Shown piece after piece: positions 6,407 to 27,337 of a stretch of DNA of 27,759 nt. The notes under the pieces are model-generated. The model saw only the letters and a list, made by a program, of their open reading frames with translations. It did not search any database and had not been told where the DNA came from. The position numbers and the translations under genes were made by a program. The DNA is taken from the IMG/VR virus record IMGVR_UViG_3300030382_002058, positions 1 through 27,759 of that record; one strand, written 5' to 3'. The stretch's first letter is position 1; the number at the start of each line of letters is the position of its first letter. The stretch is from a virus.

Positions 6407-6414
6407 CCTAGGAC

Positions 6415-6445: not shown

Positions 6446-6451
6446 GATACT

Positions 6452-6589
6452 CTAACTTCCACAAGCCTCACAATCTTCATCTTCAATGCCACAGGTTTCA
6501 GGTTGCTCTTGTTCTGTTAAGTCTTGAATCCAACTACCAAACACATCTTCGGCTATTTCTTCGGGTGTTTTGTCTTTTCTTTTATCCAT
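6452..6589 (-). CDS. small acidic cysteine-containing protein (45 aa)
   Basis: MDKRKDKTPEEIAEDVFGSW starts inside the end of the endonuclease I gene (37-bp overlap) and is very acidic, ending TCGIEDEDCEACGS with three cysteines in the last 13 residues. The overlap and the terminator placed 7 bp after its stop support expression. The C-x6-C-x2-C cluster could bind a metal. No family is recognised. Confidence 0.5.
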   Translation of the reverse strand: MDKRKDKTPEEIAEDVFGSWIQDLTEQEQPETCGIEDEDCEACGS

Positions 6590-7249: not shown

Positions 7250-7253
7250 ACAC

Positions 7254-7661: not shown

Positions 7662-7958
7662 TCAGTTCTTCTTGTTAAAGATTTTTGTGAGTTTCGATTT
7701 GTCACACTTATTGCATTTCTCGTCACCCAAAAAGCACAAAGGTAAAACAGCTATTAAAGCTAAACAGAGAATTTGCCAAGACAAACCATCTGCCTCTATT
7801 TGGGCTACTGCTGCCACAGCTAATACACCCGATACAGTTCGCTTTGATGACCACTTACCCTTGTTGTCTTTAAACATCTCAGGAACTAACGCTAATATGC
7901 CTTTTAAGGCTATCTTAGTGAATACACCCGACATTTTATTTTGTTTCTTTTTTGCCAT
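7662..7958 (-). CDS. putative holin or membrane lysis protein (98 aa)
   Basis: ATG 7958 (MAKKKQNKMSGVF) is preferred over an upstream in-frame TTG. The basic N-terminus is followed by a hydrophobic stretch (TVSGVLAVAAVAQIEA), a short gap, and a second hydrophobic helix (WQILCLALIAVLPLCFLG), then a basic tail with C-x2-C (EKCNKCDKSK). Two membrane helices beside a DUF5675 gene suggest a holin, but no holin family is recognised. It overlaps the preceding small membrane gene by 23 bp. Confidence 0.6.
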   Translation of the reverse strand: MAKKKQNKMSGVFTKIALKGILALVPEMFKDNKGKWSSKRTVSGVLAVAAVAQIEADGLSWQILCLALIAVLPLCFLGDEKCNKCDKSKLTKIFNKKN

Positions 7959-8115
7959 TGTCCTTAATGAAGAAACCAATTAAATCATCTATATAACCAA
8001 ATACCTTATTGTCTTTAATAGAAGGTGTTAGCTTTACGATAATCTTGACTACAGCTAAAATCGCAATAAGCAATTCAGCACCGTTAGCCATTAAAAAGTC
8101 TATAACTTGACCCAT
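7936..8115 (-). CDS. small single-span membrane protein (59 aa), holin-like
   Basis: MGQVIDFLMANGAELLIAIL starts at ATG 8115. One hydrophobic helix (about residues 12-29, ending KIIVKL) precedes a C-terminal charged segment that ends DNGKKETK. The ORF overlaps the start of the next membrane protein by 23 bp, an arrangement common for holin pairs. No family is recognised. Confidence 0.6.
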   Translation of the reverse strand: MGQVIDFLMANGAELLIAILAVVKIIVKLTPSIKDNKVFGYIDDLIGFFIKDNGKKETK

Positions 8116-8154
8116 AATATAAATTTTAGTTGTTAATAATGTAGTAAAGGTAAT

Positions 8155-8199
8155 GAAAAAATAGGGGAAAAGGTAGCTAAAACCTACTTTTTCACCCCT
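8155..8199 (-). terminator. hairpin terminator after the 59-aa membrane gene at 8184
   Basis: On the minus strand AGGGGTGAAAAAGTAG pairs imperfectly with CTACCTTTTCCCCT over a 7-nt loop and is followed by ATTTTTTC. The stem starts within the last codons of the gene. It would limit read-through from the tail genes into the lysis genes. Confidence 0.7.
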
Positions 8200-8363
8200 T
8201 TACTATTTTTTATGTTCTTTATCTCTCTGTACCATTTGTAAATACCAAATGATACGGCTAGTATTAGTGATGCCATTTGTAGCCATCCTTCGACAGCTGA
8301 CATACTTATTGAGATTGCAGCTACTTGTGCTATAGCTACTTCTGTTGCGTTCTTATCCATCAT
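8184..8363 (-). CDS. small single-span membrane protein (59 aa)
   Basis: MMDKNATEVAIAQVAAISIS begins 9 bp after the stop of the 1450-aa tail gene; either of two adjacent ATGs may start it. A hydrophobic helix at about residues 28-44 (MASLILAVSFGIYKWY) is followed by a basic tail (KNIKNSKGVKK). The topology resembles small class III holins or tail-associated membrane peptides. No named family is recognised. Confidence 0.6.
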   Translation of the reverse strand: MMDKNATEVAIAQVAAISISMSAVEGWLQMASLILAVSFGIYKWYREIKNIKNSKGVKK

Positions 8364-8372
8364 TATATTATA

Positions 8373-12725: not shown

Positions 12726-12745
12726 TTTCCTTTATTTTTAGCCTG

Positions 12746-15295: not shown

Positions 15296-15582
15296 TATTT
15301 ATTTAATTTTTTTAGTATCTCTTGGTGTCTTTTAACAACCTCGGCAATTTCTTCTTTTGAGGCTATTAATTTTTCAGTCTTTTTATCCCAAGGGAAAGGT
15401 AACAACTCTTTGAGTTTTAAAGCCTTTTTAGAGTGTGGTGATAGGCAAGAGTGTATAATCAACCTAGTTTGTTCCCAAGTGTTTTGCGTTTGTCGTTCAC
15501 TATACTCTCTAAATCCAATTAACTTGTTTTGGAAGGAGCGTGGGGTCATATCGTATAAATTATCAAACGATAGCCCCAACAT
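15295..15582 (-). CDS. T-part reading frame of the tail assembly chaperone, probably made by frameshift
   Basis: From ATG 15582 the frame reads MLGLSFDNLYDMTPRSFQNK and is rich in helices, matching the second tail-chaperone ORF placed before tape measure genes. The frame is open further upstream to 15663, and the open part (VVEGEEQEKVEEF and NWDKLEEIGLG) looks like coding sequence joined to this domain. It is therefore best read as the T extension of the G protein, made by -1 frameshifting at 15654-15660; independent initiation at 15582 remains possible. Confidence 0.75.
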   Translation of the reverse strand: MLGLSFDNLYDMTPRSFQNKLIGFREYSERQTQNTWEQTRLIIHSCLSPHSKKALKLKELLPFPWDKKTEKLIASKEEIAEVVKRHQEILKKLNK

Positions 15583-15950
15583 TCCTAATCCAATTTCTTC
15601 AAGTTTGTCCCAATTAAATTCCTCTACTTTTTCTTGCTCCTCTCCCTCTACTACTTTCCCTCGCTAGAAGGTTGGTCTAGTTGGAAAGCCTCAAAAATCT
15701 CATTAATCTTAGAGAAATCTTCATTGTCTAACCACTCTTCTATATCTTTAATTTTATAGTCGAATGGTTCACCGATTTTTTTTGCACCGTACTTTAGCCC
15801 AAAGAACGCAATAATCCCTACGTGGTCTATTTCTGTACCTAGTTTATGTAATTCGCTTAGTTTTAAACCACTCTTTTTACAAACCTCTTTAATACATAAA
15901 TACGAAAACCTTACAGGTCTTTCTTTACCACCAATTTCTACCTTATTCAT
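15295..15950 (-). CDS. G-T tail assembly chaperone (frameshift fusion, 218 aa)
   Basis: Predicted product of a -1 shift: residues 1-99 are the G protein (15950 to 15654), then translation slips back one base at GGGAAAG and continues VVEGEEQEKVEEF in the T frame to 15295. In lambda and many siphoviruses the minor G-T protein binds both the tape measure and the tail tube protein during tail assembly, while G alone coats the tape measure. Gene order (tail tube, G, T, tape measure) is exactly that expected. Confidence 0.75.
15651..15950 (-). CDS. tail assembly chaperone G
   Basis: The 99-aa protein (MNKVEIGGKERPVRFSYLCI) sits between the tail tube protein and the tape measure gene. It has the small alpha/beta layout of tail chaperones: an N-terminal strand pair, then helices (EVCKKSGLKLSELHKLG; IEEWLDNEDFSKINEIFEAF). 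Its C-terminal codons form the slippery heptamer, followed directly by two TAG codons. Most ribosomes should stop here, giving an excess of G over G-T. Confidence 0.8.
   Translation of the reverse strand: MNKVEIGGKERPVRFSYLCIKEVCKKSGLKLSELHKLGTEIDHVGIIAFFGLKYGAKKIGEPFDYKIKDIEEWLDNEDFSKINEIFEAFQLDQPSSEGK
15654..15660 (-). promoter_or_regulatory. -1 programmed frameshift site GGGAAAG
   Basis: In the G frame the codons read GAG GGA AAG TAG, so the heptamer is G-GGA-AAG, of the form X-XXY-YYZ, and identical to the slippery sequence of the lambda G-T site. A shift back one base moves the ribosome into the open T frame. The T frame is closed by a TAG only at 15664-15666, just before the heptamer. 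Confidence 0.85.
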
Positions 15951-15975
15951 TACCTTTTAAATTTAAGTTAGATTA

Positions 15976-16362
15976 CTATGCTCTTACCAAACTGTCTGAA
16001 CCTGTCAAAGAAACGGAGTATGTAGCGTTTTCTTCTACACCACCATCTATAGATACGCTTGTTACGAAAGCTGTACCTGTATAGGTTTCAGAATCTACGT
16101 TAAATATACAAGTTACCGCTGCTCCTGCGATAAGTACATCAAACATATCTGAAACACCCTTACCTGCTGCTGCTAAATCTACGAAAGCATCACCACTCAT
16201 TTCCCAAGACTTTAATCCCCCAAGAGAATCTGACCATCCACCTGAATCTTTAGTGGTTGCATCTCTAAGTTCAATATTTACGTTCAAAGATGCAGAAGTA
16301 CAATGTGATATTGCACCACCATCTACGCTTAGAGTTACCTCTGTTGCATTTAAAATTGCCAT
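15976..16362 (-). CDS. major tail (tube) protein
   Basis: The 128-aa protein is beta-rich and neutral to acidic, with the pattern of TP901-1/gp17-type tail tube proteins: MAILNATEVTLSVDGGAISH at the start, then SASLNVNIELRDATTKDSGGW, SWEMSGDAFVD, and SVSIDGGVEENATYSVSLTG near the end (quoted in short parts). It polymerises into the tail tube. Position just upstream of the chaperone pair supports the call. It is followed after 25 bp by the G gene. Confidence 0.85.
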   Translation of the reverse strand: MAILNATEVTLSVDGGAISHCTSASLNVNIELRDATTKDSGGWSDSLGGLKSWEMSGDAFVDLAAAGKGVSDMFDVLIAGAAVTCIFNVDSETYTGTAFVTSVSIDGGVEENATYSVSLTGSDSLVRA

Positions 16363-16367
16363 TATTT

Positions 16368-17195
16368 TTAGTTTTTAGTTATTAAACAGTTAAAAATTAA
16401 GTTTTTGTAGAACTTTTCGGGTAACTTATAGTAATCATCATCTAGGCTTACAAACCTAAACTTTGCTGTATAAGAAACACCACCCTCGGTATATGTTACC
16501 GAATAATAATCTAAAGCCTCTACGATTGCCTTAGATTGGTTGTATGTTGTATTGTAGTCATCTGCGAAACAAGCGATGCGTAAAGACACATCACACGATG
16601 CTAGTGAACTACTCTTTGTTATAAAATTATCTACATTTGCTATTTCAAATGTCGTTGCAGGATAAGCTGTTCCTTGTGGTATAATTACAGGGGAAACTTT
16701 AAGTCCTGATATTCTTTTTACAGTTATGCTTTCAAGATAACCCCCACTTCCGTAAGTTGTTGCCCAATTATTAAAAGTTAAAAACATAGAACCCGATGCA
16801 TCAGGTGTAAAGCAAAAGTTTGCTGTACCCGTACCTGCTACGTTCTTCACACCTTCATATATGTTGTTTGTATTGTATTCAGAGCCTATATCTACACTTG
16901 TTTCGTCTGCTGACTCATAAGTGTATTCAACAGCGTATGTTGAACCTGCTACTAAATCAATTACGCAGTATGCTGCTCCTGCATAAGTTCCCTGTGTAGA
17001 AACAAACATTCTCTCGTTTGACTCGTCCCACAAGTAACCTCTTGGGGGTTGTGGCGATGCCCACCAATTACCTATACCTGATTCAAATGTTCCGTTATAA
17101 ACTAACTCAGAACCAAAAGTAGAATCATTAGCTACGTTAAAGTCATAACTTCCGCATAATTTGTCAAATATTTTTTTACCTATAACTGCAAACAT
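16368..17195 (-). CDS. tail terminator-like (DUF3168-type) protein with inserted jelly-roll domain
   Basis: The 275-aa protein is about twice the usual length of its family. Residues 1-15 (MFAVIGKKIFDKLCG) and 163-275 (KVSPVIIPQGTAYPATTFEI, DVSLRIACFADDYNTTYNQS, KAIVEALDYYSV) together resemble a DUF3168-type tail terminator/completion protein, in which a first helix is followed by a PQG.a.P strand. Between them, residues about 27-162 form a carbohydrate-binding-module-like jelly roll (TFGSELVYNGTFESGIGNW, LVAGSTYAVEYTYES, DASGSMFLTFNN, GGYLESITVKRI). The order gp10-like, terminator, tail tube is standard. Confidence 0.7.
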   Translation of the reverse strand: MFAVIGKKIFDKLCGSYDFNVANDSTFGSELVYNGTFESGIGNWWASPQPPRGYLWDESNERMFVSTQGTYAGAAYCVIDLVAGSTYAVEYTYESADETSVDIGSEYNTNNIYEGVKNVAGTGTANFCFTPDASGSMFLTFNNWATTYGSGGYLESITVKRISGLKVSPVIIPQGTAYPATTFEIANVDNFITKSSSLASCDVSLRIACFADDYNTTYNQSKAIVEALDYYSVTYTEGGVSYTAKFRFVSLDDDYYKLPEKFYKNLIFNCLITKN

Positions 17196-17197
17196 AT

Positions 17198-17680
17198 CTA
17201 AAATCCTGCTTTTTTAATAAGTTTGTTTAACATCTTATCTAAATCCCTTTCAGCACTTAAATAAATTGTTGATTCCATTTTCTTTGCTGTTGCCTCAAAT
17301 ATATTTTTTCTAGGGGCTTGAATTGCGTTACCCTTTATTTGCATAGCAGCTAAATTGTAACTATCCTTACCCTTGACTCTGATTGGGGTTGTTCTCTTTT
17401 TAAGAGGTCCAACAAACAAACCTGCCTCTCTTGACCTTTTTGCTGTTTTAATGCCTATGGTTTCCCAAGTTGGTGTTCTTCTACCATCACGCTTTTTATT
17501 ATGAGTATTAAACTCTTTTCGATATGCTTGTTGCATACCCTTTACAAGTTTAGTTGCTGCAGGTCTAAGAGCCTTATTTATTTGTGTACGAGATTGTTTA
17601 GCTGAATAACCAAGTCTTTTTAAACCTTGCTTAATATCATCAACTCCCCTAACAACAATTCTCGTATTTTTTGCAGCCAT
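17198..17680 (-). CDS. HK97 gp10-like tail/neck protein
   Basis: The 160-aa basic protein starts with IVVRGVDDIKQGLKRLGYSA, a helix-strand start typical of the HK97-gp10-like family, and continues with NKALRPAATKLVKGMQQAYR and a long arginine/lysine-rich middle. It lies between head closure and tail terminator genes, the canonical place. The role in the connector or tail is inferred from family and order. Confidence 0.85.
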   Translation of the reverse strand: MAAKNTRIVVRGVDDIKQGLKRLGYSAKQSRTQINKALRPAATKLVKGMQQAYRKEFNTHNKKRDGRRTPTWETIGIKTAKRSREAGLFVGPLKKRTTPIRVKGKDSYNLAAMQIKGNAIQAPRKNIFEATAKKMESTIYLSAERDLDKMLNKLIKKAGF

Positions 17681-17682
17681 AA

Positions 17683-18051
17683 CTAAACAGGTGAATCAGT
17701 TGGTAAATCTTGTTTTACAAAAACCTCAATAAACTCTTTTCGTGGGTCTATTACATACCCTATAATCTCGTATTCATCCCCTGAATCAACAAGAGTCCAA
17801 TCCGATTTTATTACCTTAGTTTCGCTGCTATACCTAACTGTATAAACAAACCGACCATAAGACTGTAATTCTTCTCCTTCAAACTTTTCCTCAATATCTC
17901 TAAGCGACTTAACATTCTTGTTAGCCCAAACCGTGACTACTGTTGAATCGGCACTTGTAATACCACCGAATCCATCCTGAGTGTAAGTTTTCTCCTTAAA
18001 GGTAATTCTTGTGTTAAATTCCCCTGCCTTTATTTTTGCAATGAAAGCCAT
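17683..18051 (-). CDS. head closure / head-tail joining protein
   Basis: The 122-aa protein matches the phage head-tail joining family (SPP1 gp16-like): GEFNTRITFKEKTYTQDGFG near the N-terminus, then TVVTVWANKNVKSLRD, FVYTVRYSSETKVIKSDWTL, and a final EYEIIGYVIDPRKEFIEVFV. The pattern 'dgfGG....w..vwA' and 'i...y.I.gv.dp' is characteristic. It seals the portal after DNA packaging. Length is typical. Confidence 0.88.
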   Translation of the reverse strand: MAFIAKIKAGEFNTRITFKEKTYTQDGFGGITSADSTVVTVWANKNVKSLRDIEEKFEGEELQSYGRFVYTVRYSSETKVIKSDWTLVDSGDEYEIIGYVIDPRKEFIEVFVKQDLPTDSPV

Positions 18052-18054
18052 ATC

Positions 18055-18639
18055 TTAATGGAAACATTTATAAGGTTGTAGTAATATTTCAGATGCCATT
18101 GGGAATCTTCGTTTCCTGTCCTCTCTAAAGTAATACATATCAGACACAATCAACTTAATCGCTTGTTGTATAGCCTGTGGCACATCGCTTTGTGTAGCAC
18201 CAAACCCTGTTTTAAACTCTATCCAAAATGTGTTTGCATTTTCACTCTCTAATGTTGGTGTGCCTAAAGCAGTTTTTGTGTAACATATAGATGGATTTGA
18301 ATAAGCATCTATATAAGCCTCTGACGATGTTATTTCATCCCCATCACTATCTATGTAATGAATAGGTGTTGTTAATAAGGTACAATCAGGAAATATTAAT
18401 GATGCAGCAGATACGGGGGAATTAAAATATAACTTATACTCGTGTTCAATAAAATGCCTTGAACAATAATGCTCTGCCATTTCTGTTGCAGCATCTATAT
18501 ATAGACCTAACAAAGTATCTTCATCATCAGTATCAATACGAAGGTGTGACTTAATTTCATCAACTGTAACGACCTTTGTTGAAGGGTCGGTTTTAACAAC
18601 CAAGTCCCCTTGTGTGTATGTGTTGGGGTTAAGATACAT
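18055..18639 (-). CDS. head-tail connector protein, gp6-like
   Basis: The 194-aa protein contains VTVDEIKSHLRIDTDDEDTL followed by LGLYIDAATEMAEHYCSRHF, the hallmark of the phage gp6-like connector family that rings the portal beneath the neck. A beta-rich middle and a helical region (AIQQAIKLIVSDMYYFREDR) complete it. The start follows a leader hairpin/terminator after the capsid gene, so its expression may be lower than that of the capsid protein. Confidence 0.9.
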   Translation of the reverse strand: MYLNPNTYTQGDLVVKTDPSTKVVTVDEIKSHLRIDTDDEDTLLGLYIDAATEMAEHYCSRHFIEHEYKLYFNSPVSAASLIFPDCTLLTTPIHYIDSDGDEITSSEAYIDAYSNPSICYTKTALGTPTLESENANTFWIEFKTGFGATQSDVPQAIQQAIKLIVSDMYYFREDRKRRFPMASEILLQPYKCFH

Positions 18640-18663
18640 AGATTTTTATTGTAAGAGTTAAGT

Positions 18664-18697
18664 TTAATAAAGGGGGAGTTCCGAAGAACCCCCACTT
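18664..18697 (-). terminator. hairpin terminator/attenuator after the capsid gene
   Basis: On the minus strand AAGTGGGGGTTC pairs with GAACTCCCCCTT across a TTCG tetraloop, with one G-U pair and one mismatch, followed by TTATTAAAC. C(UUCG)G loops are unusually stable. The U-run is short, so partial termination or mRNA protection is more likely than full stop; genes downstream lack a separate clear promoter. Confidence 0.7.
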
Positions 18698-18716
18698 AAT
18701 TATTTATAGTGTAATA

Positions 18717-19958
18717 CTACTCAATCAAAGATTGCATTACAGACGCATTCTGCGCACAAAGACCATCTACAAGACCTGTAGCGACCATTCTAGCACCACC
18801 TTTACCTGCAAGGGTATAAGGGTCAAAAAGAATGTCTAAACCACCGAAAATACCTAAATGTACTTTACTAAAGTCACCACAAAGCACTTTATCGTTAGTT
18901 GTAGTACCATCAGCACCTAAAGCACTTGTAATTTGATAAGGAGTATTGTTAATACGCTTATCTTTCAAGTCTAAGTAACCATCTGTAAAGGTAGCACCTG
19001 CTAAACCTGCGATAGTTTTCCAAGCTGCGGGATTGAAGATGTAACCTGTCTTAGCATCTAATCCAACACCTGCTGCAATCAATTCAGCTTCTAATTCTGC
19101 AATTAAAGCAATAGTAGCTCCTGCACCTGTAGATGCACCTGCTGCTTGATAGAAGATAGATTCAGGAGCATTCGTTACATTAGCTTCTGCTAATAACGCT
19201 GCTTCCATTTTAGACATCATAGAGTTTGCAATATTTCGTCTTAATGCACCCTCTAAACCTGCATTCTGAACCAAAGATTCAGGAGACATCTCAACTACAG
19301 AAATAACTTTGTTTGGAGACAATGTCGCTGCTGCAATAGACCCTGCTGCTGTTACATCAGAACCCGCAGTTGCTTCTGCTGCCCAAGTAGATGTAATACC
19401 TTGTACGATAGGGAATTTACGGTCTGCTGATAATCCTGAGTAAAAGTTAGAACCTGCCTTTACTAATACAGAATTAGCTTGAAGTTGGTCAATGAAACTT
19501 GCAACTTCGGTAGCCTTTACGTTTCCTGCTGTTACAGCACGTTGTTCAGTTTCACCATTCAATACAGAATAAGGAATACCAATACCTTTAAATGCTTGTT
19601 GAGGGTTCTCATTACGAGCCTCTTGGTCCATTTCTTTAACCAATCCTTCCATACGACCTGAGTATGCTGCTCTAGCTGCATCAACGAAAGAGTAAGTTCT
19701 AATCTCTTTTGCATCTGATGCTTTTTGTGTACCGAAAGAAACAGGTGCTTGTGCTGCGATCTCAGCGTTTAACTTCTCTTGTCGCTCAACAGTTTCAATG
19801 TTTTTAGCTAATTTGTCAATAGCTGTCATTTTCTCGTCATAAGAAACTTGCTCAGTTTCGTTAAAGTCACGAGATTCAGTTTTGCAAGATTCAAGCATCA
19901 CATTCGCATCTGCGATTAACGCTGCTCTATCTTGTCTTAATTCTACGGAATTTTTCAT
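18717..19958 (-). CDS. major capsid protein, HK97 fold
   Basis: The 413-aa protein has an N-terminal helical delta/scaffold region (residues about 1-75, e.g. ESCKTESRDFNETEQVSYDE), normally removed by the prohead protease. The HK97 core follows, including FPIVQGITSTWAAEATAG, LSPNKVISVVEMSPESLVQN (E-loop to spine-helix region) and IANSMMSKMEAALL. Later KVHLGIFGGLDILFDPYTLA and a C-terminal MVATGLVDGLC are also family-typical. Its start overlaps the protease stop by ATGA. Confidence 0.93.
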   Translation of the reverse strand: MKNSVELRQDRAALIADANVMLESCKTESRDFNETEQVSYDEKMTAIDKLAKNIETVERQEKLNAEIAAQAPVSFGTQKASDAKEIRTYSFVDAARAAYSGRMEGLVKEMDQEARNENPQQAFKGIGIPYSVLNGETEQRAVTAGNVKATEVASFIDQLQANSVLVKAGSNFYSGLSADRKFPIVQGITSTWAAEATAGSDVTAAGSIAAATLSPNKVISVVEMSPESLVQNAGLEGALRRNIANSMMSKMEAALLAEANVTNAPESIFYQAAGASTGAGATIALIAELEAELIAAGVGLDAKTGYIFNPAAWKTIAGLAGATFTDGYLDLKDKRINNTPYQITSALGADGTTTNDKVLCGDFSKVHLGIFGGLDILFDPYTLAGKGGARMVATGLVDGLCAQNASVMQSLIE

Positions 19959-20605
19959 ATCCTTCTTTTTAGATTTAATTCGTTAGTTAATAAATTGATT
20001 TGCGAACCAACTGATTGAGGGGTTTCCTCATCGTTATCCTGTCGTACCTCGGTTGGTTCTTCTTTCGTTTCCTCACTAGCCTTTGGGGAAGTAGATTCCT
20101 CAAATTCTTGCTTAGAACGAAGTGCGACATCTGTGTTAGCGTAAGCACCAACACCTACTATGGAAACATCTACTAATCTACCTATTTTATTAATAGTTCG
20201 TCTAGTAATATCACCATCTTTTGACCAATCATCATCTTCTACTGTGAAAGCAAAAGAAGATTCATATAATAAGCCTCTACGCATTAACTCAGCAACATCG
20301 TTTCCAGTTGTTGTGTTTGGCAAAGTAGCCTCATAAATCAAACCTCTTTCATCTACAGATAGGTTTAAAGTACCACCGACATTTCTATCTAAAATTAGGT
20401 TAGGGTCGTGATTGAATGTTAAAATAACATTGTCCTCTAATCGACCATCAAAAGCCCTTGTAGATATTGTTTCTCGGAATCCTAAATCCCTGCTATCTGT
20501 ATCGAATAACGCTGCGTAACCACGTACCTTAGTTTCGTCAGAACCTTCATCTAAACGAACCTCGTAGTTACCGTTATATATCCTTATTTCCTTATTTTCT
20601 TTCAT
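19955..20605 (-). CDS. prohead protease, HK97 family (U35)
   Basis: The 216-aa serine protease cleaves the capsid delta domain during head maturation. Visible are VRGYAALFDTDS (about residues 27-38), the histidine H66 in ILTFNHDPNLILDRN, the serine in LYESSFAFTVEDD (S116/S117), and LVDVSIVGVGAYANTDV near the end of the domain, all standard for the family. A low-complexity acidic C-terminal tail (STSPKASEETKEEPTEV) follows. It is ATGA-coupled to both portal and capsid genes. Confidence 0.92.
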   Translation of the reverse strand: MKENKEIRIYNGNYEVRLDEGSDETKVRGYAALFDTDSRDLGFRETISTRAFDGRLEDNVILTFNHDPNLILDRNVGGTLNLSVDERGLIYEATLPNTTTGNDVAELMRRGLLYESSFAFTVEDDDWSKDGDITRRTINKIGRLVDVSIVGVGAYANTDVALRSKQEFEESTSPKASEETKEEPTEVRQDNDEETPQSVGSQINLLTNELNLKRRI

Positions 20606-21846
20606 TGTGTTATCCTTTTAGTATCTTCACCTAATTTATCTAAAGGCATCATATTAGATTGCATATATACCTTTGCACTTTCATCACCCATAGGATTTAA
20701 GTCCTCTAAAGAACGAACCTCATCAGGAGAAAGCACCCCGATGTTTACTAATGTTCTATAATAATCAGCACGACTTTTTGAATCACCTCTAAGAATAGCG
20801 TTTAGGTTGAATTTGAAGTATTCTGTACCTCTTTTGTTTGAAGGAATTAATTTTTGGTTTAATTCACTTTCAATTCTCTTAATCCAAGGTGTTATAGTAT
20901 GCACCACAAAGTCGATTTGCTGTGCTTCGATATTACTATAAGTTGCAGAAGATAGGTCATTCACTAGGTGATTAGGTACTCTGAAAATGCGACAAATGTC
21001 GCTTATTTGATATTCCCTAGACTCAATGAATTGTGCTTGGTTGTTAGGAACAGTCCTCGCAACCCAATCCATACCTTCTTCTAATATCGCTGTTTTTCCT
21101 GTATTCGCTACACCTGAATAGTTGCTATTCCACGATTCTCTTAATCGTTTAGCTGTATCAGGCTTTAATGTAGCAGGGTGTTTAAGAATACCACCTAACT
21201 GTGAACCGTTTTTAAACCAATTACCTGCGTGCTTATCTAAAGATATAGATATACCTAATGTTTCGGCAGCTGCCTCTATTGGTGATTTACCTGTGATACC
21301 ATCAAAGGAAAGCCCTTTAACGTGAATCATATTTATGGCTTGTACCTTACCTGTTATTGGGTAAACACTACCCTCAGACTGAGATACTTCGTAATAAACT
21401 TCCCTACCATCAGGAGAAACGAAAACATTAACATCTTTATATTGTATAGGGTGAATGCCTATTGGTAGACCACCTCGGTTTCTCTCTATGTAAGCACAGA
21501 AATTTCCATCAAAACTTAGGTCTATTAAAGCACGTTCAAAGAACATAAAGGAATTATATATCCCTGATGGCTGTTCCCCCACTAATTTATTTAATGGGTT
21601 ATTATTTAATTTAATCTTATTATTGTTTTTGTCTTTCTCGTAAAGCGAGATGGGTAGGGAAGCTATAGTTTCAGACAAAACCCGAACACAAGACCAAACC
21701 GCTGCTACTCGCAAAGCTTGTTCTTTTGATACACCATTATTGTTTGACCCAAATATTGTACCACCAAGTATAGTAGAACCAAAGATAGAACGTGATTCTT
21801 CTTTAGTAGTGGATTTTTTTCTTTTAAAAACGTCGAATATACCCAA
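20602..21846 (-). CDS. portal protein, HK97 family
   Basis: The 414-aa protein shows the HK97 portal pattern: SKEQALRVAAVWSCVRVLSE, SLPISLYEKDK, LNKLVGEQPSG, the middle MIHVKGLSFDGITGKSPIEA, and ISDICRIFRVPNHLVNDLSS with YSNIEAQQIDFVVHTITPWI. It forms the dodecameric ring for DNA entry and exit. The only usable start is TTG at 21846 (MGIFDVFKRKK), because an in-frame TAA lies three codons upstream and the next ATG is deep in the protein. Confidence 0.93.
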   Translation of the reverse strand: MGIFDVFKRKKSTTKEESRSIFGSTILGGTIFGSNNNGVSKEQALRVAAVWSCVRVLSETIASLPISLYEKDKNNNKIKLNNNPLNKLVGEQPSGIYNSFMFFERALIDLSFDGNFCAYIERNRGGLPIGIHPIQYKDVNVFVSPDGREVYYEVSQSEGSVYPITGKVQAINMIHVKGLSFDGITGKSPIEAAAETLGISISLDKHAGNWFKNGSQLGGILKHPATLKPDTAKRLRESWNSNYSGVANTGKTAILEEGMDWVARTVPNNQAQFIESREYQISDICRIFRVPNHLVNDLSSATYSNIEAQQIDFVVHTITPWIKRIESELNQKLIPSNKRGTEYFKFNLNAILRGDSKSRADYYRTLVNIGVLSPDEVRSLEDLNPMGDESAKVYMQSNMMPLDKLGEDTKRITQ

Positions 21847-21869
21847 AGCTGCTTAAATAGTTGTACAAG

Positions 21870-21914
21870 TGTAAATAGTGAAAAGTGCTAAAATGTGAAC
21901 AACTTTTCAGTAGT
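21870..21914 (-). other. intergenic hairpin before portal gene
   Basis: TGAAAAGT and ACTTTTCA form an 8-bp inverted repeat with a 15-nt loop at the end of the sigma-like gene. No U-run follows on the minus strand and no clear promoter was seen in this 60-bp gap, so its role is unknown. Confidence 0.4.
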
Positions 21915-22422
21915 TTTTTCTTAATTCTTTCAAAGCATTCGCTAATACCCTGTGAACATACCTAGTTGATATACCTTGAATTAAGGCTATTTCTCTAATT
22001 TTAAACGAATATTCATACCTTAAAACAACTATCTCCCTTAACATCCTGTTGTCTGATTTTACGACTTTTTCCCAAATCTTATCTGCTAAATTATCATAAT
22101 CACCCTCTGTAACGCATTTTAAGGTGTCTCTAAGGCGATAAGTCTTGTGAAAGGGTGATGATGTAGATAATACTTGATTGGTGACCACACGAGCTACGAA
22201 ATAGCGTAATTGATTCGTTTCGTATAAAGATTGTATCGTTTCCTCTAATTGAGTAAGTAGAATTACGTTTATATCTTGCACCAAGTCATCTAACAGGTGT
22301 AAATCCCTGTTGTTACCTAGTACAGATGCACATATATCTCTTATTGTTAGTTGCTCCTGTGCAACTATTTCGTTCTTAGATAAAGAATATTTCTTTGTCA
22401 TCATATCCTGAATTTCCACCAT
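21907..22422 (-). CDS. sigma-70/ECF-like regulatory protein
   Basis: The 171-aa protein has a two-part sigma layout. At residues about 27-90, LHLLDDLVQDINVILLTQLE with LRYFVARVVTNQVL recalls sigma region 2 (eDLvQevfl). At 126-170, LREIVVLRYEYSFKIREIAL followed by ISTRYVHRVLANALKELRKN matches the region 4 helix-turn-helix. It is embedded in the packaging operon between terminase and portal, overlapping the terminase gene by 47 bp. It may be a phage late sigma factor or a helix-turn-helix protein with a packaging role. Confidence 0.65.
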   Translation of the reverse strand: MVEIQDMMTKKYSLSKNEIVAQEQLTIRDICASVLGNNRDLHLLDDLVQDINVILLTQLEETIQSLYETNQLRYFVARVVTNQVLSTSSPFHKTYRLRDTLKCVTEGDYDNLADKIWEKVVKSDNRMLREIVVLRYEYSFKIREIALIQGISTRYVHRVLANALKELRKNY

Positions 22423-23959
22423 TTTTATTTTGCATAGCCTCTGATAAGCCCATCAACGTAGATACCACACCATCAATCTTGTCATTACTGCGACTTTTGT
22501 CGGGTTTCACATTCCCTGCAGGGTCTAATTTTAGGACCACATTAGACATCATCCACCTTAAAGTAGGATTACCATCGTGCCTAATACTACCCCCTAAAAC
22601 TAAAGTTTCATATTCCTTAGTCGCAGGTGACATTGTTCTGTAACCCTGACCTACAGGTATCATAGGACAACCTTCTTCTGTTAAGTCAATAACAATCTGT
22701 GATGCGTTCCACCTATCATAAGCTATCATTCTAATATCGTATAATTCTGATAAGTCTCTAATCTTTTGTTTTATGTAATTGTAGTCGCAAACATCGCCCT
22801 CTGTAAATGTAACCCATCCCTCTCTTTGCCATTTAACGTAATCAACCTTATCCCTTTCAGACCTTTTATGAGCGTTATCAGAAGGTATAAAGGAGTGTAA
22901 GAAAACATCGTACCCATTGTCATTATCTGGGAATAATAAGCTGAGACAGGTAATATCTCGTGTGGATGCTAAATCCAATCCCACATAACAAGGTTTACCT
23001 ACAAAGTTAGATTCTTTTATATCATCATAGCAATCCATCCATTTTTCATCAGAAATCCACTTAGTTTCATTTGCAACCCATTGATTTAGGTGTAGTCTAC
23101 GAAAAGTGTTTTCATAAGATGGTTCGTTTTTAGCCTTTACAGCTTGTTGTTTCATATATTCTTCGGTGATAATAGTCCCAAATCCCGGATTTGCTTTTCT
23201 CCAAACCTGTTCATCAAAGATGTCATCGTCTTTATCAGCCTCATAAACAATACCCAAGAATGAATCGTCTTGAATAGCACCACTAATCAACTTCTTAGCA
23301 TAGTCATAAAGTTCTTTACAAATATGGTCTTTTTGGTGTCCTGCTCCTGCTGTGGTAATACCAAGCATTAAAGGCTCTTTCCTAGCCCCCATACTCGTGA
23401 GTAACACATCGTATAGGTCACGATTTTTATGTGAATGAATTTCATCTAACAAACAACAAGATAGGTTTAAACCGTGTTTAGTGTCTGCGTCTGCTGAAAT
23501 TACTTTGTAGTATGAACCTACCTTATCGTACGTAATGGAATCCCTGTAAGTGTTTGAGCGTTTAATCAACTCAGGCTCTTGTAGAACCATTTGTTTAGCA
23601 ATAGAAAACGATAAACGTGCTTGTTCTTTATCTGCTGCTGCTGATACAATTTCAGCACCTTTCTCACCATCTGAGAATAGCATATAAAGGGCTATGCCTA
23701 CCATTAAATTTGTCTTACCATTCTTACGTGGTATGAAAACAAAACATTGCCTGAATTTCCTTAAATTGGTAGTTTTTGACTTCCAACCGAACAATGGTCT
23801 TATAATATCATCCTTTTGCCAATCTTCAAGGATAAACCTTTTACCTGCTAAATCACCTTTAACGTGCTGACAAAACATCTCTATGAAATCAACAGCCCTA
23901 CTCGCTGCTTTTTCATCGAAGTAATATCTATCTTCATCTATGTGATGTAGGTTATTCAT
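22376..23959 (-). CDS. terL: terminase large subunit
   Basis: The 527-aa packaging motor has the ATPase Walker A PRKNGKT (residues 77-83), Walker B LLDEIHSH (D172, E173), the coupling motif region with LGITTAGAGHQKD, and the RNase H-like nuclease domain with VGLDLASTRDI (D329) and a distal acidic residue in NDKIDGVVS. Length and motif order fit the P27-partnered (HK97-type) large terminase. It starts in an 8-bp overlap with the small subunit. Confidence 0.95.
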   Translation of the reverse strand: MNNLHHIDEDRYYFDEKAASRAVDFIEMFCQHVKGDLAGKRFILEDWQKDDIIRPLFGWKSKTTNLRKFRQCFVFIPRKNGKTNLMVGIALYMLFSDGEKGAEIVSAAADKEQARLSFSIAKQMVLQEPELIKRSNTYRDSITYDKVGSYYKVISADADTKHGLNLSCCLLDEIHSHKNRDLYDVLLTSMGARKEPLMLGITTAGAGHQKDHICKELYDYAKKLISGAIQDDSFLGIVYEADKDDDIFDEQVWRKANPGFGTIITEEYMKQQAVKAKNEPSYENTFRRLHLNQWVANETKWISDEKWMDCYDDIKESNFVGKPCYVGLDLASTRDITCLSLLFPDNDNGYDVFLHSFIPSDNAHKRSERDKVDYVKWQREGWVTFTEGDVCDYNYIKQKIRDLSELYDIRMIAYDRWNASQIVIDLTEEGCPMIPVGQGYRTMSPATKEYETLVLGGSIRHDGNPTLRWMMSNVVLKLDPAGNVKPDKSRSNDKIDGVVSTLMGLSEAMQNKNGGNSGYDDKEIFFI

Positions 23960-24425
23960 CGTTATTAAAGAAATTTTCTATTTTAATATCAGGTGTTTGT
24001 GATGCGTGTTCTATTGCGTTTACCTTTGCCCTACTTGAAGGTGTTAATCCAAATTCTTTAAGTAAAGCAAAAACTCTAACAAAGGCTTGATTGGCTATTA
24101 AGACTTCGGGTCGTTGTATAGACTTTGTGTGACCCTCTCTTGATGTTACCTCTTGTGATGCACCTAATTCGTTTATAACCTCTTTAGCGTTCTTATAATC
24201 GGCATAAGAATCACAAAGGATGGTTAAGGACATCTCGTCTGCTAAAGTGAGAACAGACATATCGTGTAGTAAGGTGCTTAGTTCTACAAAAGACTTTTGC
24301 CCTTCTTCTGATAGCCAAGTAGGTATTGGTGGAATTTCACTAGGTAGTTTAGGTTCATTTTTATTCATCCTATCATTCCTTAGTGTTCCCCTTTGTTTTT
24401 TAATCTCTGTAGGTAAACGTTTCAT
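23952..24425 (-). CDS. terS: terminase small subunit, P27 family
   Basis: The 157-aa protein (from ATG 24425, MKRLPTEIKKQRGTLRND) matches the P27 small terminase: the start 'K...eik..rGt..', the PKLPSEIPPIPTWLSEEGQK segment, and helices LLHDMSVLTLADEMSLTILC and YADYKNAKEVINEL. It recognises phage DNA for packaging. An in-frame ATG at 24455 would add ten residues (MYIYRNDCLI) but would overlap the presumed promoter, so the shorter start is chosen. Confidence 0.88.
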   Translation of the reverse strand: MKRLPTEIKKQRGTLRNDRMNKNEPKLPSEIPPIPTWLSEEGQKSFVELSTLLHDMSVLTLADEMSLTILCDSYADYKNAKEVINELGASQEVTSREGHTKSIQRPEVLIANQAFVRVFALLKEFGLTPSSRAKVNAIEHASQTPDIKIENFFNNDE

Positions 24426-24503
24426 AATTAAACAATCATTTCTGTAAATATACAATTATTTATTTATAAAGAAAGAAAAAGTAACATAAAAAGAAAGAAA
24501 TAA

Positions 24504-24572
24504 CTTTATCCTTTATCCTTGTCCTATAGGTCTATCGTTGACCTCAATTAGACCTCATTTAGACCCCTAATT
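24504..24572 (+). repeat. iteron-like repeats
   Basis: Two exact 7-bp units CTTTATC (24504-24510, 24511-24517) and a related CTTGTCC follow one another. Then three 11-bp units follow: GACCTCAATTA (24540-24550), GACCTCATTTA (24551-24561) and GACCCCTAATT (24562-24572). AGGTC at 24528-24532 is an inverted copy of the unit start. The 11-bp period is close to one helical turn, as in protein-binding iterons. Confidence 0.65.
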
Positions 24573-24639
24573 TACTAAGTACTGATTTTCAGTGAGTTAA
24601 TAAAAAAAAGGGTGTTTAAGTGAAGTTTTTTAGTATAAA

Positions 24640-24672
24640 ATTAGGAAGTTAACATTTGTTAGCATATATTTG
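24640..24672 (+). promoter_or_regulatory. rightward promoter with palindromic operator candidate
   Basis: ATTAGG (24640-24645), a 19-bp spacer and TATATTTG (24665-24672) form the promoter 26 bp before ATG 24699. The spacer contains the perfect palindrome TAACA-TT-TGTTA (24650-24661) at spacer positions 5-16. The same positions in the promoter at 6374-6406 hold TAACA-AA-TGTTT, so a common regulator is plausible. Confidence 0.75.
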
Positions 24673-24698
24673 TAGAACAATTAATCAATCTCTCAGTT

Positions 24699-24932
24699 AT
24701 GGACAACTTACTAGCAGTTATTTGCGACTTACACGAATTAGCAAGAACGACAACGGATGAAAAGACAAGAACTAAACTACTTAACCTTTGGGTAAATTTG
24801 GGTCGCATTAAAAGAGCAAACGAAGCACTAAGGGTTGGTTCACTTCATTCAGAAGAAACATTAAGAATATCAGAAGATGAACTAAACAGACTATTAAGTG
24901 CTGAAAGTTTATGTGAAAAATTAATAGACTAA
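24699..24932 (+). CDS. hypothetical helical protein (77 aa)
   Basis: MDNLLAVICDLHELARTTTD is the first gene of the rightward right-end operon. The protein appears all-helical and charged, with NLWVNLGRIKRANEALRV in the middle and SEDELNRLLSAESLCEKLID at the end. No family is recognised. Its own promoter with an operator-like palindrome suggests a regulated early gene. Confidence 0.6.
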   Translation: MDNLLAVICDLHELARTTTDEKTRTKLLNLWVNLGRIKRANEALRVGSLHSEETLRISEDELNRLLSAESLCEKLID

Positions 24933-24937
24933 AGGTT

Positions 24938-25135
24938 ATGAATACAGATAAAGTAGTATCTTTGCAAGGCAATAAAAGAAAGGTTAAAGGTAAGAGTTTG
25001 ACTGAGTACAGTAGAGGTAGAAGGTTAAACAAACAAGCTGCTGTAGCCTTAGCTAAGAGTAAAGGGTTTGTAACAGAAACGATTTGGGAACTTGTAGTTG
25101 GTAAATCAATGGCAGGTAACAAACAGAATAGATAA
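24938..25135 (+). CDS. hypothetical small basic protein (65 aa)
   Basis: MNTDKVVSLQGNKRKVKGKS follows the previous stop by 5 bp. The protein is strongly basic, and LNKQAAVALAKSKGFVTETI could be a helix-turn-helix-like element, but it is too short to call. The stop is at the edge of the putative structured RNA region. Confidence 0.5.
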   Translation: MNTDKVVSLQGNKRKVKGKSLTEYSRGRRLNKQAAVALAKSKGFVTETIWELVVGKSMAGNKQNR

Positions 25136-25140
25136 TATTA

Positions 25141-25490
25141 CAAGGGGTGTTACGAACTAACACTTAAATTATAACAAGTCGGTTATATCCCTAGGCTACT
25201 CGTAGCACGTGATGCTACATTAAAATTATCGTTTAGCCGACTTACTAAGTACACTAACTAACCGTTAGATACCGATTTCGTCTCAACTTAGTAAGATAAT
25301 ACGTGAGTAAGCTACGTGAGTGCTACACCTCATACGAGAGTACCAAGCGTGAGTTGGGCATACAAGTCCTATCGTTAAACTAATACAACGGTTTTATTTC
25401 AGTCGGTAGGCAAATTTTCTAAATTGGAGTTTAGAAATCAGCATAGTTGAAACAAAGTAGGGTAGTGTGGGAACTACTCTACGTTTCAGC
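25141..25490 (+). ncRNA. putative large structured noncoding RNA
   Basis: No ORF of note is present, but many long helices can be drawn: 25145-25152 with 25158-25165; 25176-25185 with 25234-25243 (10 bp); 25202-25207 with 25213-25218; 25241-25250 with 25286-25295 (10 bp, perfect); 25254-25258 with 25264-25268; 25416-25423 with 25430-25437 (8 bp, perfect); and an 18-bp hairpin 25446-25490 with an AAA bulge. Short motifs recur (ACGTGAG near 25301, 25315 and, as GCGTGAG, 25348). The tRNA at 25622 follows. No known RNA family was recognised. Extent and strand are inferred from neighbours. Confidence 0.55.
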
Positions 25491-25533
25491 TAAATTTGGA
25501 AACATAGTATAAGCAATCTTTAAAACAAGTGTT

Positions 25534-25617
25534 ATGTATAAGTATATTTTATTAACTATGGTTATTTTTGCGGTTTATTTATCTTACAAAGAATATCAAG
25601 ATAAAAATAAGTCTTAA
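25534..25617 (+). CDS. micro membrane peptide (27 aa)
   Basis: MYKYILLTMVIFAVYLSYKE followed by a short charged tail. One hydrophobic helix spans nearly the whole N-terminal half. The ATG follows GTGTT, like other starts in this region (for example GGTT-ATG and AGTT-ATG). It lies between the structured RNA and the tRNA. Similar micro-ORFs occur at 26062, 27340 and 27422. Confidence 0.4.
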   Translation: MYKYILLTMVIFAVYLSYKEYQDKNKS

Positions 25618-25621
25618 TATT

Positions 25622-25740
25622 TGTGAGGTGGTGAAATTGGAAAACACGACCAACTGTCTATTGGTTAGGGATAAGAAATAAAGTGATGGTACGCATCCAC
25701 ACCTAATCGCCCTTTGTAGGTTCGAATCCTGCCCTCACAG
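25622..25740 (+). tRNA. aberrant tRNA, anticodon GTC by position, 50-nt variable region
   Basis: The acceptor stem TGTGAGG (25622-25628) pairs perfectly with CCTCACA (25733-25739), leaving G25740 as discriminator. The D arm is GTG/CAC around a Leu-like loop AAATTGGAAAA. The anticodon arm is ACCAA-CTGTCTA-TTGGT, giving anticodon GTC at 25656-25658. The T arm is GTAGG-TTCGAAT-CCTGC. The variable region (25666-25715) is 50 nt, far longer than in Leu/Ser tRNAs; AGGG (25667-25670) pairs with CCCT (25710-25713), enclosing a second hairpin (25683-25700). No encoded CCA. Amino-acid identity is uncertain: Asp by anticodon, Leu/Ser by shape. Confidence 0.7.
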
Positions 25741-25773
25741 CTAAATGTCCAGTTTTTACATCAAAAAACTTAA

Positions 25774-25816
25774 GGCTATAACCTTATTTTTATATGTAGA
25801 TTGTCAGGTTATAACC
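25774..25816. promoter_or_regulatory. paired GGYTATAACC dyads
   Basis: GGCTATAACC (25774-25783) and the perfect palindrome GGTTATAACC (25807-25816) lie 33 bp apart, about three helical turns, just upstream of the gene at 25839. The first is within a small hairpin TAAGG/CCTTA followed by TTTTTA, which could also end the tRNA transcript. An operator is possible. Confidence 0.4.
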
Positions 25817-25838
25817 ATACTAACTAAATACTAATGAT

Positions 25839-26069
25839 ATGAGAACAATTCTTGAATGGAAATGTGGGTATTGTGACAGCGTACAAAAGTCTGATAGTGG
25901 GGAAAGGTGGAAGATGGATTTTTGCTCCTGTGGCAAATCAGGTGTGGACCTAGAGGAATTTTATCAAAGGGCTTGTGGTGAAGTTGTAATACTTAATACT
26001 ACTGCCTTTGGTGAATTAAAGGGTGAGGGAATAAATGAGGGATTAAATGAGGGAATAAAAGATGATTAA
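25839..26069 (+). CDS. small zinc-ribbon-like protein (76 aa)
   Basis: MRTILEWKCGYCDSVQKSDS holds C9-x2-C12, and FCSCGKSG supplies a second C-x-C, giving a four-cysteine zinc-ribbon-like arrangement. The C-terminus is a tandem repeat, GEGINEGLNEGIKDD, encoded by three 12-bp units. It overlaps the next micro-ORF by 8 bp. Short zinc-ribbon proteins of this type are common in phage accessory regions; function unknown. Confidence 0.6.
   Translation: MRTILEWKCGYCDSVQKSDSGERWKMDFCSCGKSGVDLEEFYQRACGEVVILNTTAFGELKGEGINEGLNEGIKDD
26025..26060 (+). repeat. 12-bp tandem repeat, three units
   Basis: GAGGGAATAAAT, GAGGGATTAAAT and GAGGGAATAAAA follow one another and encode the end of the zinc-ribbon-like protein. 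The unit number could vary between strains. Confidence 0.8.
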
Positions 26070-26145
26070 AGGATTCTTAATAACAATGCTTATTGTTGGT
26101 ATTACTTTAACTTTAGCAGACTTAATTACTGACATTAGAGAGTAA
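26062..26145 (+). CDS. micro membrane peptide (27 aa)
   Basis: MIKGFLITMLIVGITLTLAD followed by LITDIRE. The peptide is almost entirely one hydrophobic helix. The start overlaps the end of the zinc-ribbon-like gene by 8 bp (GATGATTAA), the same junction style as at 27421-27429, which supports translation coupling. Confidence 0.45.
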   Translation: MIKGFLITMLIVGITLTLADLITDIRE

Positions 26146-26580
26146 TTCGCAATTCGCGTATCACGAACTGTCCCAATTATGTGAGAAAAATGGGTGCAAT
26201 ACACAAAAAGTAAGCGCACATTACGTACTGGTTAGTCGGAAATCCCGACATACCACTATACGTTTCTAAATATAAATACTACCAAAATCACATTATTGTA
26301 TGATTTCTCATACAAAAACGATTATTTTAGGTGATAATGACTTAAAATTCATACTATATTGTGAATTGCGTGTAACAAAACAAGGGTAAATGTGTTTAAT
26401 ATGAGCCACAAATATCAACGTACTGAGCTAAAATACTGAAAAACAAAAAGTTTTAAGTATATTTATTTGGATAAGTAAACAAGATTGCTTACATTTATCC
26501 CCAAGAGTTAACCATTTTGTTGACGTTAACAAAAACGGAAACCTATATATGTTAAGTAGAATCAATTAACTAACCTTATT
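26146..26580. other. 435-bp gene-poor stretch rich in dyads
   Basis: No ORF above 30 codons is convincing. Dyads are TGGT-TA-GTCGG-AAATC-CCGAC-AT-ACCA (26230-26257), TTGTATGA-TTTC-TCATACAA (26296-26315, 8-bp arms, perfect), AATTCA/TGAATT (26346-26367) and TTGTTGACGTTAACAA (26517-26532, 7 of 8 pairs). A promoter candidate is at 26465-26497. The stretch may be regulatory, may encode another small RNA, or both. Confidence 0.45.
26465..26497 (+). promoter_or_regulatory. candidate rightward promoter
   Basis: ATTTGG (26465-26470), a 19-bp spacer and TACATTTA (26490-26497) fit the layout of the other promoters here with one change in the -7. The gene at 26581 follows after 83 bp. A second, weaker -7 (TATATATG, 26544-26551) lies closer to the ATG. 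Confidence 0.45.
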
Positions 26581-26967
26581 ATGGCAAAGATTAAAAAGAG
26601 TAAGTGTAAATTCTGTCAAAGCGAAACAGAGTATTTATTATCGTCAGAAACGAATGCAGAACGATTATTATCGGCAGCAGAAAAACTAGGCTTTATAGGT
26701 ACTAAACCTATTACACCTCAGGGGTTAATGGATTTAGGGTTTGAAGAAGAATACCAAGAACCCGAAGATGGTAAAGCAGGATTCTTGTATTATTACATTA
26801 ATGAAGAAGAATGCGGTGTTGATATTCTATCTAACGAGGGTGGAACAGAAGTAGAAATAGGTGGTATTCTGAAAGTAAAAGACCTTAACTTGCTTGGGGA
26901 GTTTGTAGCTGCTTTACTTAACATTAAGGAACGGGCTTATTCAGAGGGGTCGTGGGACGAAGAATAA
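26581..26967 (+). CDS. hypothetical protein with N-terminal CxxC (128 aa)
   Basis: The N-terminus MAKIKKSKCKFCQSETEYLL has one C-x2-C pair (C9, C12), and a single further cysteine lies near residue 78 (EEECGVD), so a complete zinc site is not obvious. The rest is acidic with mixed helices and strands (ERLLSAAEKLGFI; EVEIGGILKVKDLNLLGEFV). No family is recognised. It follows a promoter-like region and is the longest protein of the right-end block. Confidence 0.6.
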   Translation: MAKIKKSKCKFCQSETEYLLSSETNAERLLSAAEKLGFIGTKPITPQGLMDLGFEEEYQEPEDGKAGFLYYYINEEECGVDILSNEGGTEVEIGGILKVKDLNLLGEFVAALLNIKERAYSEGSWDEE

Positions 26968-27143
26968 GCATAGACAGGGATTTATTGGTTGAGGCATTCC
27001 CTTATATGAAGGATTATTACAAGTTGCCTCGTAAGAAAAAAAAGGCTATGAAAATAAAAGTAACAAGGGGCATTAAGAAAGCCATACTTTTATATATAGA
27101 TGCTCATACATCAGGAAAAGGAATTTGTAATTTAACCCTATAG
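26952..27143 (+). CDS. hypothetical small basic protein (63 aa)
   Basis: The frame opens with GTG at 26952, overlapping the previous gene by 16 bp, or with an internal ATG at 27006 (MKDYYKLPRKKKKAM). The protein is very lysine-rich (PRKKKKAMKIKVTRGIKKAI) and could bind nucleic acid. No family is recognised. The start is uncertain. Confidence 0.45.
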   Translation: MGRRISIDRDLLVEAFPYMKDYYKLPRKKKKAMKIKVTRGIKKAILLYIDAHTSGKGICNLTL

Positions 27144-27145
27144 TT

Positions 27146-27337
27146 ATGTCAAAGTTTAAGTGTAAAGAATGTGACAAGGAATTGGTATTAGCCAAACACA
27201 CTATGAAGGTTGTGAATGGTAAGGTAGTGTCTGATGATGCTATTTGTTGTGACAACTATATGGAGTCTATAAAAGAAAGTAAAGGATTTGGTGGAATAAT
27301 AAAAAAACCAAACGGAACAGTAAGCGGAAAATTCTAG
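27146..27337 (+). CDS. small zinc-binding-like phage protein (63 aa)
   Basis: MSKFKCKECDKELVLAKHTM carries C6-x2-C9, and DDAICCDNYM supplies a second pair of cysteines, giving a rubredoxin/zinc-ribbon-like knuckle. The C-terminus is G/K-rich (GFGGIIKKPNGTVSGKF). Short proteins with this arrangement occur in Bacteroidota phages; no function is known. It begins 2 bp after the preceding stop. Confidence 0.6.
   Translation: MSKFKCKECDKELVLAKHTMKVVNGKVVSDDAICCDNYMESIKESKGFGGIIKKPNGTVSGKF

What the first reader, a model, noticed from the sequence alone, without database searches (positions are those of the whole stretch)
25141..25490. Probable new large structured RNA beside the tRNAs
A 350-nt stretch without ORFs holds at least seven helices of 5 to 18 bp, several of them perfect 8-10-bp pairings, which is much more than expected in AT-rich intergenic DNA. 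Two 10-bp helices share the bases 25241-25243, so they must stack or compete. The location beside a tRNA gene in a phage recalls large phage RNAs such as GOLLD and ROOL, but I recognise none of their sequence motifs.
Basis: partly seen in the sequence, partly recalled or inferred. Interest (0 to 1): 0.8.

Follow-up and report, generated by a model that had tools for sequence, protein, structure and literature searches.

The report
New pseudoknotted phage RNA family
Uncultured phages, probably of marine Bacteroidota bacteria, carry a previously undescribed family of large folded RNAs built from repeated small knots, often with tRNA genes embedded in them; its structure is backed by evolution, but its job is unknown.

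Summary
The 350-nt region (window 25143-25491, + strand) belongs to a family found in well over 100 viral contigs. It is modular. A three-way junction (D1) comes first, then a hairpin domain (D2, or an embedded tRNA gene in some relatives). One to four copies follow of a 26-nt H-type pseudoknot (ACG[A/U]GAG-N6-RCGUGAGU), then an AGUCC...GGC stem, and usually two 3' hairpins. Compensatory changes support D1 (9 of 14 pairs), D2 (8 of 11), and the pseudoknots plus AGUCC stem (9 of 15). All 34 three-prime tails fold with z<-2. D1, searched independently, is followed by a pseudoknot in 20 of 20 cases. No Rfam family matches, including GOLLD and ROOL, and no cultured phage does by blastn. The locus occurs about once per genome, always on the early/replication strand, next to 36 different downstream gene families, with tRNAs often abutting the last pseudoknot. 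Best guess: a trans-acting structured RNA processed from the early transcript, analogous to GOLLD/ROOL but unrelated. A cis-acting early-operon element is the main rival. No transcript has been seen.

The parts
25144..25191 (+). D1, three-way junction: P1 25144-25146/25189-25191, P2 25147-25152/25158-25163 (loop CGANC), P3 25171-25175/25182-25186 (loop AAGUCG)
   Evidence: 16 gapless homologues, 99% of cells paired, 9 of 14 pairs with changes on both sides, 0/500 shuffles reach the covariation score; model R2 hits window 25143-25192 at 74.9 bits; followed by a pseudoknot in 20/20 distinct occurrences
25194..25238 (+). D2: P4 GGCUA/UAGCC enclosing hairpin P5 25202-25218 (loop CGUGA)
   Evidence: 9 homologues, 100% of cells paired, 8 of 11 pairs with changes on both sides; this place is taken by a tRNA gene in L009, L010, L012, L013, L019, L020, L163, L174
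25241..25295 (+). P6 CUUACUAAGU/ACUUAGUAAG with inner hairpin 25254-25268
   Evidence: perfect 10-bp pairing; replaced by CCUUGC/GCAAGG in L004 and L007 and by AACUUACUA/UAGUAAGUU in L018; not counted formally
25301..25326 (+). Pseudoknot module 1, ACGU-GAG-UAAGCU-ACGU-GAGU-GCUAC: S1 25301-25304/25314-25317, S2 GUAGC/GCUAC with a bulged A
   Evidence: stringent matcher: 150 modules in 1.66 Mb of viral loci, 1 after shuffling; S1 ACG/CGU and AAG/CUU exchange, GG/CC in L022
25334..25359 (+). Pseudoknot module 2, ACGA-GAG-UACCAA-GCGU-GAGU-UGGGC
   Evidence: R1 hit window 25328-25414 at 65.5 bits; S2 pairs 16-30, 17-29, 18-28 change on both sides in 34-54 of 90 sequences
25364..25412 (+). AGUCC stem: CCUAUCG/CGGUAGG, loop of variable length in the family
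   Evidence: 5 of 6 pairs with changes on both sides
25416..25437 (+). 3' hairpin UUUCUAAA/UUUAGAAA, followed by the conserved AUCAGC
   Evidence: absent in some members (for example L130, L187)
25445..25491 (+). Terminal long hairpin, loop GUGGGA in the window
   Evidence: 34 of 34 homologous 3' tails fold with z<-2, mean -4.5; no run of T follows it in the window
25534..25617 (+). 27-aa hydrophobic ORF (MYKYILLTMVIFAVYLSYKEYQDKNKS), next after the RNA; link to the RNA uncertain
   Evidence: its best 17-residue hydropathy is 1.64, just under the cut-off of 1.9 that 27 of 60 short next ORFs pass against 44 of 396 controls
25622..25740 (+). tRNA-like gene with anticodon-loop GUC and an oversized variable arm
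   Evidence: Rfam tRNA 44 bits; missed by ARAGORN; compact GUC relatives in L007 and L020

Best explanation
A new family of modular, pseudoknotted noncoding RNA made by uncultured phages, with hosts probably Bacteroidota. It is transcribed as part of the early/replication transcript and probably released from it by RNA processing; where a tRNA abuts the last pseudoknot, by the tRNA maturation enzymes. It then probably acts in trans: the repeated pseudoknots, with their near-invariant GAG and GAG(U) loops, would be docking sites for one host or phage partner (a protein or the ribosome), and D1, the AGUCC stem and the 3' hairpins form the scaffold. Shown: the structure, its conservation, its modularity, early-strand location, about one locus per genome, embedded tRNAs, no fixed neighbouring gene. 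Inferred: transcription, processing, action in trans, the partner. I put the existence of the structured RNA family at about 0.97; the stated confidence is for the trans-acting mechanism.
For: Covariation in D1, D2, the pseudoknots and the AGUCC stem, and sense-strand G-U pairs such as UG 46/90 at pair 14-32, which would be C-A mismatches on the other strand. 150 modules against 1 in shuffled DNA. All 90 distinct clusters intergenic. Records of 20-90 kb hold about one locus. Same strand as the replication genes and opposite to terminase, portal, capsid and tape measure in every locus where those were found. 36 downstream and 33 upstream gene families, which is hard for a gene-specific cis element. 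D1 linked to a pseudoknot in 20/20. tRNA ends 0-5 nt before the last module in several lineages with different tRNAs. GOLLD shows tRNAs in its linker and GOLLD/ROOL lie near tRNA islands (PMC12286853).
Against: No transcript data. Most members lack an intrinsic terminator after the last hairpin, and 19 of 113 modules start within 16 nt of an upstream stop codon, so at least these have no promoter of their own: also what a cis element would look like. The next start codon is usually about 75-140 nt after the last module. A transmembrane micropeptide follows more often than expected, which hints at a cis link in part of the family.
Confidence: 0.5

Rival explanations
1. A cis-acting operon element: folded in the nascent or intercistronic early mRNA, it acts on the whole early operon by antitermination (as HK022 put RNA does), mRNA stabilisation or ribosome access, whichever gene follows.
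For: Always on the early strand, about one per genome, squeezed between stop and start codons, usually no terminator after it. In L090 a TATATTTG promoter-like site lies 3 nt before the module.
Against: Position in the operon differs: before the early genes, between SSB and the replication initiator, after the helicase. Embedded tRNAs would be cut out and split it. A terminator-like T run follows the last hairpin in L072.
Confidence: 0.3
2. An RNA decoy or antitoxin: tandem pseudoknots of about 33-nt period mimic the RNA antitoxin of a type III toxin-antitoxin system or another defence RNA and inactivate a host defence nuclease.
For: Tandem H-type pseudoknots with 33-nt spacing; early genes of phages often counter defence (general knowledge). 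Type III antitoxins are repeats of RNA (PMC8860590).
Against: No defence-related protein among the window's early ORFs (PADLOC; Pfam). Repeats are few, not identical, and part of a larger conserved fold with D1, D2 and hairpins.
Confidence: 0.1
3. A structured leader controlling the small membrane peptide that follows, as in type I toxin-antitoxin or attenuated small-protein genes.
For: 27 of 60 short next ORFs have a transmembrane-like stretch against 44 of 396 controls, P=3e-9 before allowing for relatedness.
Against: More than half of the loci have other genes there; in L185 the peptide has a promoter-like TATCTTTG after the RNA.
Confidence: 0.06
4. A DNA-level element (origin, packaging or recombination site) whose inverted repeats merely look like RNA.
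For: Intergenic, inverted repeats, near TerS in the window's clade.
Against: Pseudoknot covariation, strand-specific G-U pairs and fixed orientation; found far from terminase in other phages.
Confidence: 0.03

Closest known systems
GOLLD RNA
   Same: Phage-borne, large, several domains with a conserved 3' part, near tRNA genes, and tRNAs sometimes in its linker (PMC12286853)
   Different: No covariance-model match; about 350 nt against >800; built from repeated 26-nt pseudoknots not described for GOLLD in the passages read
ROOL RNA
   Same: Phage and prophage RNA of unknown function, often near tRNA islands, several pseudoknots (PMC12286853)
   Different: No covariance-model match; about half the size; found here only in viral contigs
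Type III antitoxin RNAs (ToxI and others)
   Same: Tandem short pseudoknots of similar period
   Different: No toxin gene recognised nearby; modules not identical repeats; embedded in a larger fold
HK022 put RNA (from memory)
   Same: Structured RNA in a phage early transcript
   Different: put sites are two plain stem-loops in leaders of both early operons; this is one much larger pseudoknotted element per genome
T4 stable RNAs species 1 and 2 (from memory)
   Same: Stable phage RNAs of unknown function made with tRNAs from a polycistronic transcript
   Different: No sequence or structure comparison was made here

Membership tests
GOLLD | Match to the Rfam GOLLD covariance model | tested here: not met
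   No hit at gathering score in the window or 13 relatives, none at E<=10 for 24450-26600
GOLLD | tRNA genes beside it or in a variable linker | tested here: met
   tRNA between D1 and the module or between modules in L009, L012, L019, L020, L118, L140 and others
GOLLD | Homo-oligomeric cage | not testable with these tools
   needs cryo-EM or mass photometry
ROOL | Match to the Rfam ROOL covariance model | tested here: not met
Type III toxin-antitoxin | Adjacent endoribonuclease toxin gene | tested here: not met
   No Pfam or PADLOC toxin among the window's neighbouring ORFs; relatives' neighbours were only clustered
Type III toxin-antitoxin | Tandem pseudoknot repeats | tested here: inconclusive
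   1-4 modules, 33-nt spacing, but non-identical and in a larger fold
Phage structured ncRNAs in general | Covariation-supported secondary structure | tested here: met
Phage structured ncRNAs in general | Discrete transcript | not testable with these tools
   no expression data at hand
HK022 put-type antiterminator | Suppresses termination of the RNA polymerase that made it | not testable with these tools
   needs a reporter assay

The most novel reading that the evidence does not exclude
The RNA is an RNA-built particle or RNP made early in infection, in which repeated pseudoknot modules bind a common partner and the exchangeable linker carries phage tRNAs as cargo or as processing handles: a third, unrelated solution beside GOLLD and ROOL to the same unknown phage need.
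Probability: 0.2. Interest if true: 0.9.

Novelty: new variant of a known kind. Interest (0 to 1): 0.72.

Why it matters
GOLLD and ROOL are phage RNAs whose purpose is an open question. An independent family with the same habits (phage, early operon, tRNAs inside or beside) but small repeated modules and over 100 divergent members gives a compact, testable object. A 26-nt pseudoknot can be synthesised, solved and used as bait to find the partner.

Tried and rejected
Helix 25176-25185/25234-25243 (used by the MFE fold): not conserved, excludes P3 and P4. Rfam at relaxed threshold: only the tRNA and chance hits. blastn against cultured phages with three family members: chance matches only. Pattern scan of bacterial genomes: at most 24 bits, chance level. 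Covariance search of 395 Bacteroidota genomes: no hit, but only 11 candidates per genome were scored, so a weak negative. A many-copy 5'UTR element (suggested by promoter-like sites before modules in L090 and L140): about one locus per genome speaks against it. MAFFT alignment of the terminal hairpin is too poor for covariation counts, so tails were folded one by one. First D1 scan failed through a one-base error in my pattern, corrected.

Full report
Observation. The stretch is intergenic, between an ORF ending at 25135 and a 27-aa ORF at 25534. The inverted repeats and the two 10-nt helices sharing 25241-25243 are exact. The + strand folds at -90.7 kcal/mol, z=-2.6, with 1 of 100 shuffles as good; the - strand gives z=-1.6. 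Alone this would be modest; most of it comes from the 3' hairpins.

Homologues. The terminase gene upstream brought 80 viral contigs without any use of the RNA sequence. In about 25 of them the same place holds a diverged copy. Alignment showed a repeated motif, ACG[A/U]GAG-N6-RCGUGAGU. A covariance model (R1) of the module plus the AGUCC stem gave most viral members 25-75 bits, while matches in the pattern-selected bacterial loci reached 24 bits at most. Two more viral scans, one for an AAG/CUU form of stem 1 and one for D1, added about 45 contigs.

The pseudoknot. Stem 1 (positions 7-9 with 21-23) is ACG/CGU in most, AAG/CUU in others, and GG/CC in L022. Position pair 10/20 goes U with A and A with G (P=0.0006). 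Stem 2 (13-18 with 28-32, one bulge) takes CG, GC, AU, UA and GU in turn. The order of strands, S1-S2-S1'-S2', makes it an H-type pseudoknot, with 2-nt and 4-nt loops that fit the usual geometry (inference). The two scans selected for one stem-1 form each, so counts of stem-1 types are biased; but L022, L028, L030, L033, L036 and L038 came in through terminase and show the alternatives. A stringent matcher finds 150 modules in 1.66 Mb of viral loci (near-duplicate contigs included), 1 after shuffling and 1 in 0.9 Mb of bacterial loci.

The other domains. D1 is a gapless 48-nt three-way junction with 9 of 14 pairs changed on both sides. D2 is a stem enclosing a CGUGA hairpin, 8 of 11. In a MAFFT alignment not fitted to the structure, the module and AGUCC stem show 6 of 15 such pairs and 0 of 500 shuffles reach the covariation score; in the model-fitted set of 90 it is 9 of 15. 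Sequence relatedness is not removed by these shuffles, so the slid controls in the same calls matter: there the cells paired fall from 91-100% to 19-54%. The 3' tails, which align poorly, each fold into the same one- or two-hairpin form, all 34 with z<-2, mean -4.5. D1 searched on its own is followed by a pseudoknot within 45-150 nt in 20 of 20 distinct cases, so D1 and the modules are one unit.

Context. All 90 distinct clusters lie outside ORFs. The records searched whole have about one locus each, some with several modules. In every locus where they were recognised, replication-type genes (DUF3799 nuclease, DUF3127 SSB, replication initiator, helicase) run with the RNA, and terminase, portal, capsid and tape-measure genes run against it. 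The RNA sits at several different points of this early operon, beside 36 downstream and 33 upstream gene families. 19 of 113 modules start within 16 nt of an upstream stop codon. tRNA genes are embedded: between D1 and the module (L009-L020 group), between modules (L118, L140, L350, L352), or directly before the module (L131), with the tRNA end 0-5 nt from the module. In the window a tRNA-like gene follows at 25622-25740. The host is inferred to be Bacteroidota from DUF3127 and TAnnTTTG-type sites; this was not proved.

Known families. Apart from tRNA, no Rfam family reaches its threshold in the window or in 13 relatives, and at E<=10 only two chance-level hits outside the RNA appear. blastn with three members finds nothing in 50,697 cultured-phage records. 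The text searches found no description, but the two original papers that described GOLLD and ROOL are not held. The habits resemble GOLLD and ROOL as described in PMC12286853; membership is not met.

Mechanism. That the RNA is folded on the + strand is as good as shown. That it acts in trans is my preferred inference, because position and neighbours change while the fold stays, and because embedded tRNAs would cut it free. The cis-operon rival is strong because most copies seem to lack their own promoter and terminator. The small membrane peptide next to it is a recurring companion that may be a clue or only a shared niche.

Noticed in passing
window 25622-25740; L007 933-1026; L020 383-477: tRNA-like gene with a GUC (Asp) anticodon loop on a body with a long variable arm and Leu-like D arm, discriminator G; in the window the variable arm is swollen to about 50 nt and ARAGORN misses it. 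The same GUC tRNA recurs 150-600 nt downstream of the RNA in other lineages.
   Followed up: partly
L012, L013, L163, L174, L362 (AGUC) and L019 (AAUA), tRNA abutting the pseudoknot module: Embedded tRNAs that ARAGORN reads with four-base anticodons (8-nt anticodon loops).
   Followed up: no
window 25534-25617 and the ORF after the RNA in about 27 other loci: Tiny single-transmembrane peptides (24-34 aa or somewhat longer) follow the RNA more often than control short ORFs, in several unrelated sequence families.
   Followed up: partly
L072, L108, L133, L099: A subfamily whose terminal hairpin loop reads UUGGUCGUC; in L108 GGUCGU could pair with ACGACC in the D1 loop. L072, L133 and L140 have another 5' domain (GTTAAACYCTAATAAT...) in place of D1.
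   Followed up: no
L090 near 7284 (-) and L140 near 6980 (-): Promoter-like TATATTTG or TACCTTTA a few bases before an AAG-type module, so the module may be the 5' end of a transcript there.
   Followed up: partly
L007 1304-1544 (-): A relative of the window with the two-module unit duplicated (four modules), and no AGUCC stem of the usual kind.
   Followed up: no
window 73-6034 (+), 6073-24455 (-), 24699-27337 (+): Early/replication genes on + and structural genes on -, so the two + blocks are probably one early operon across the record ends.
   Followed up: no
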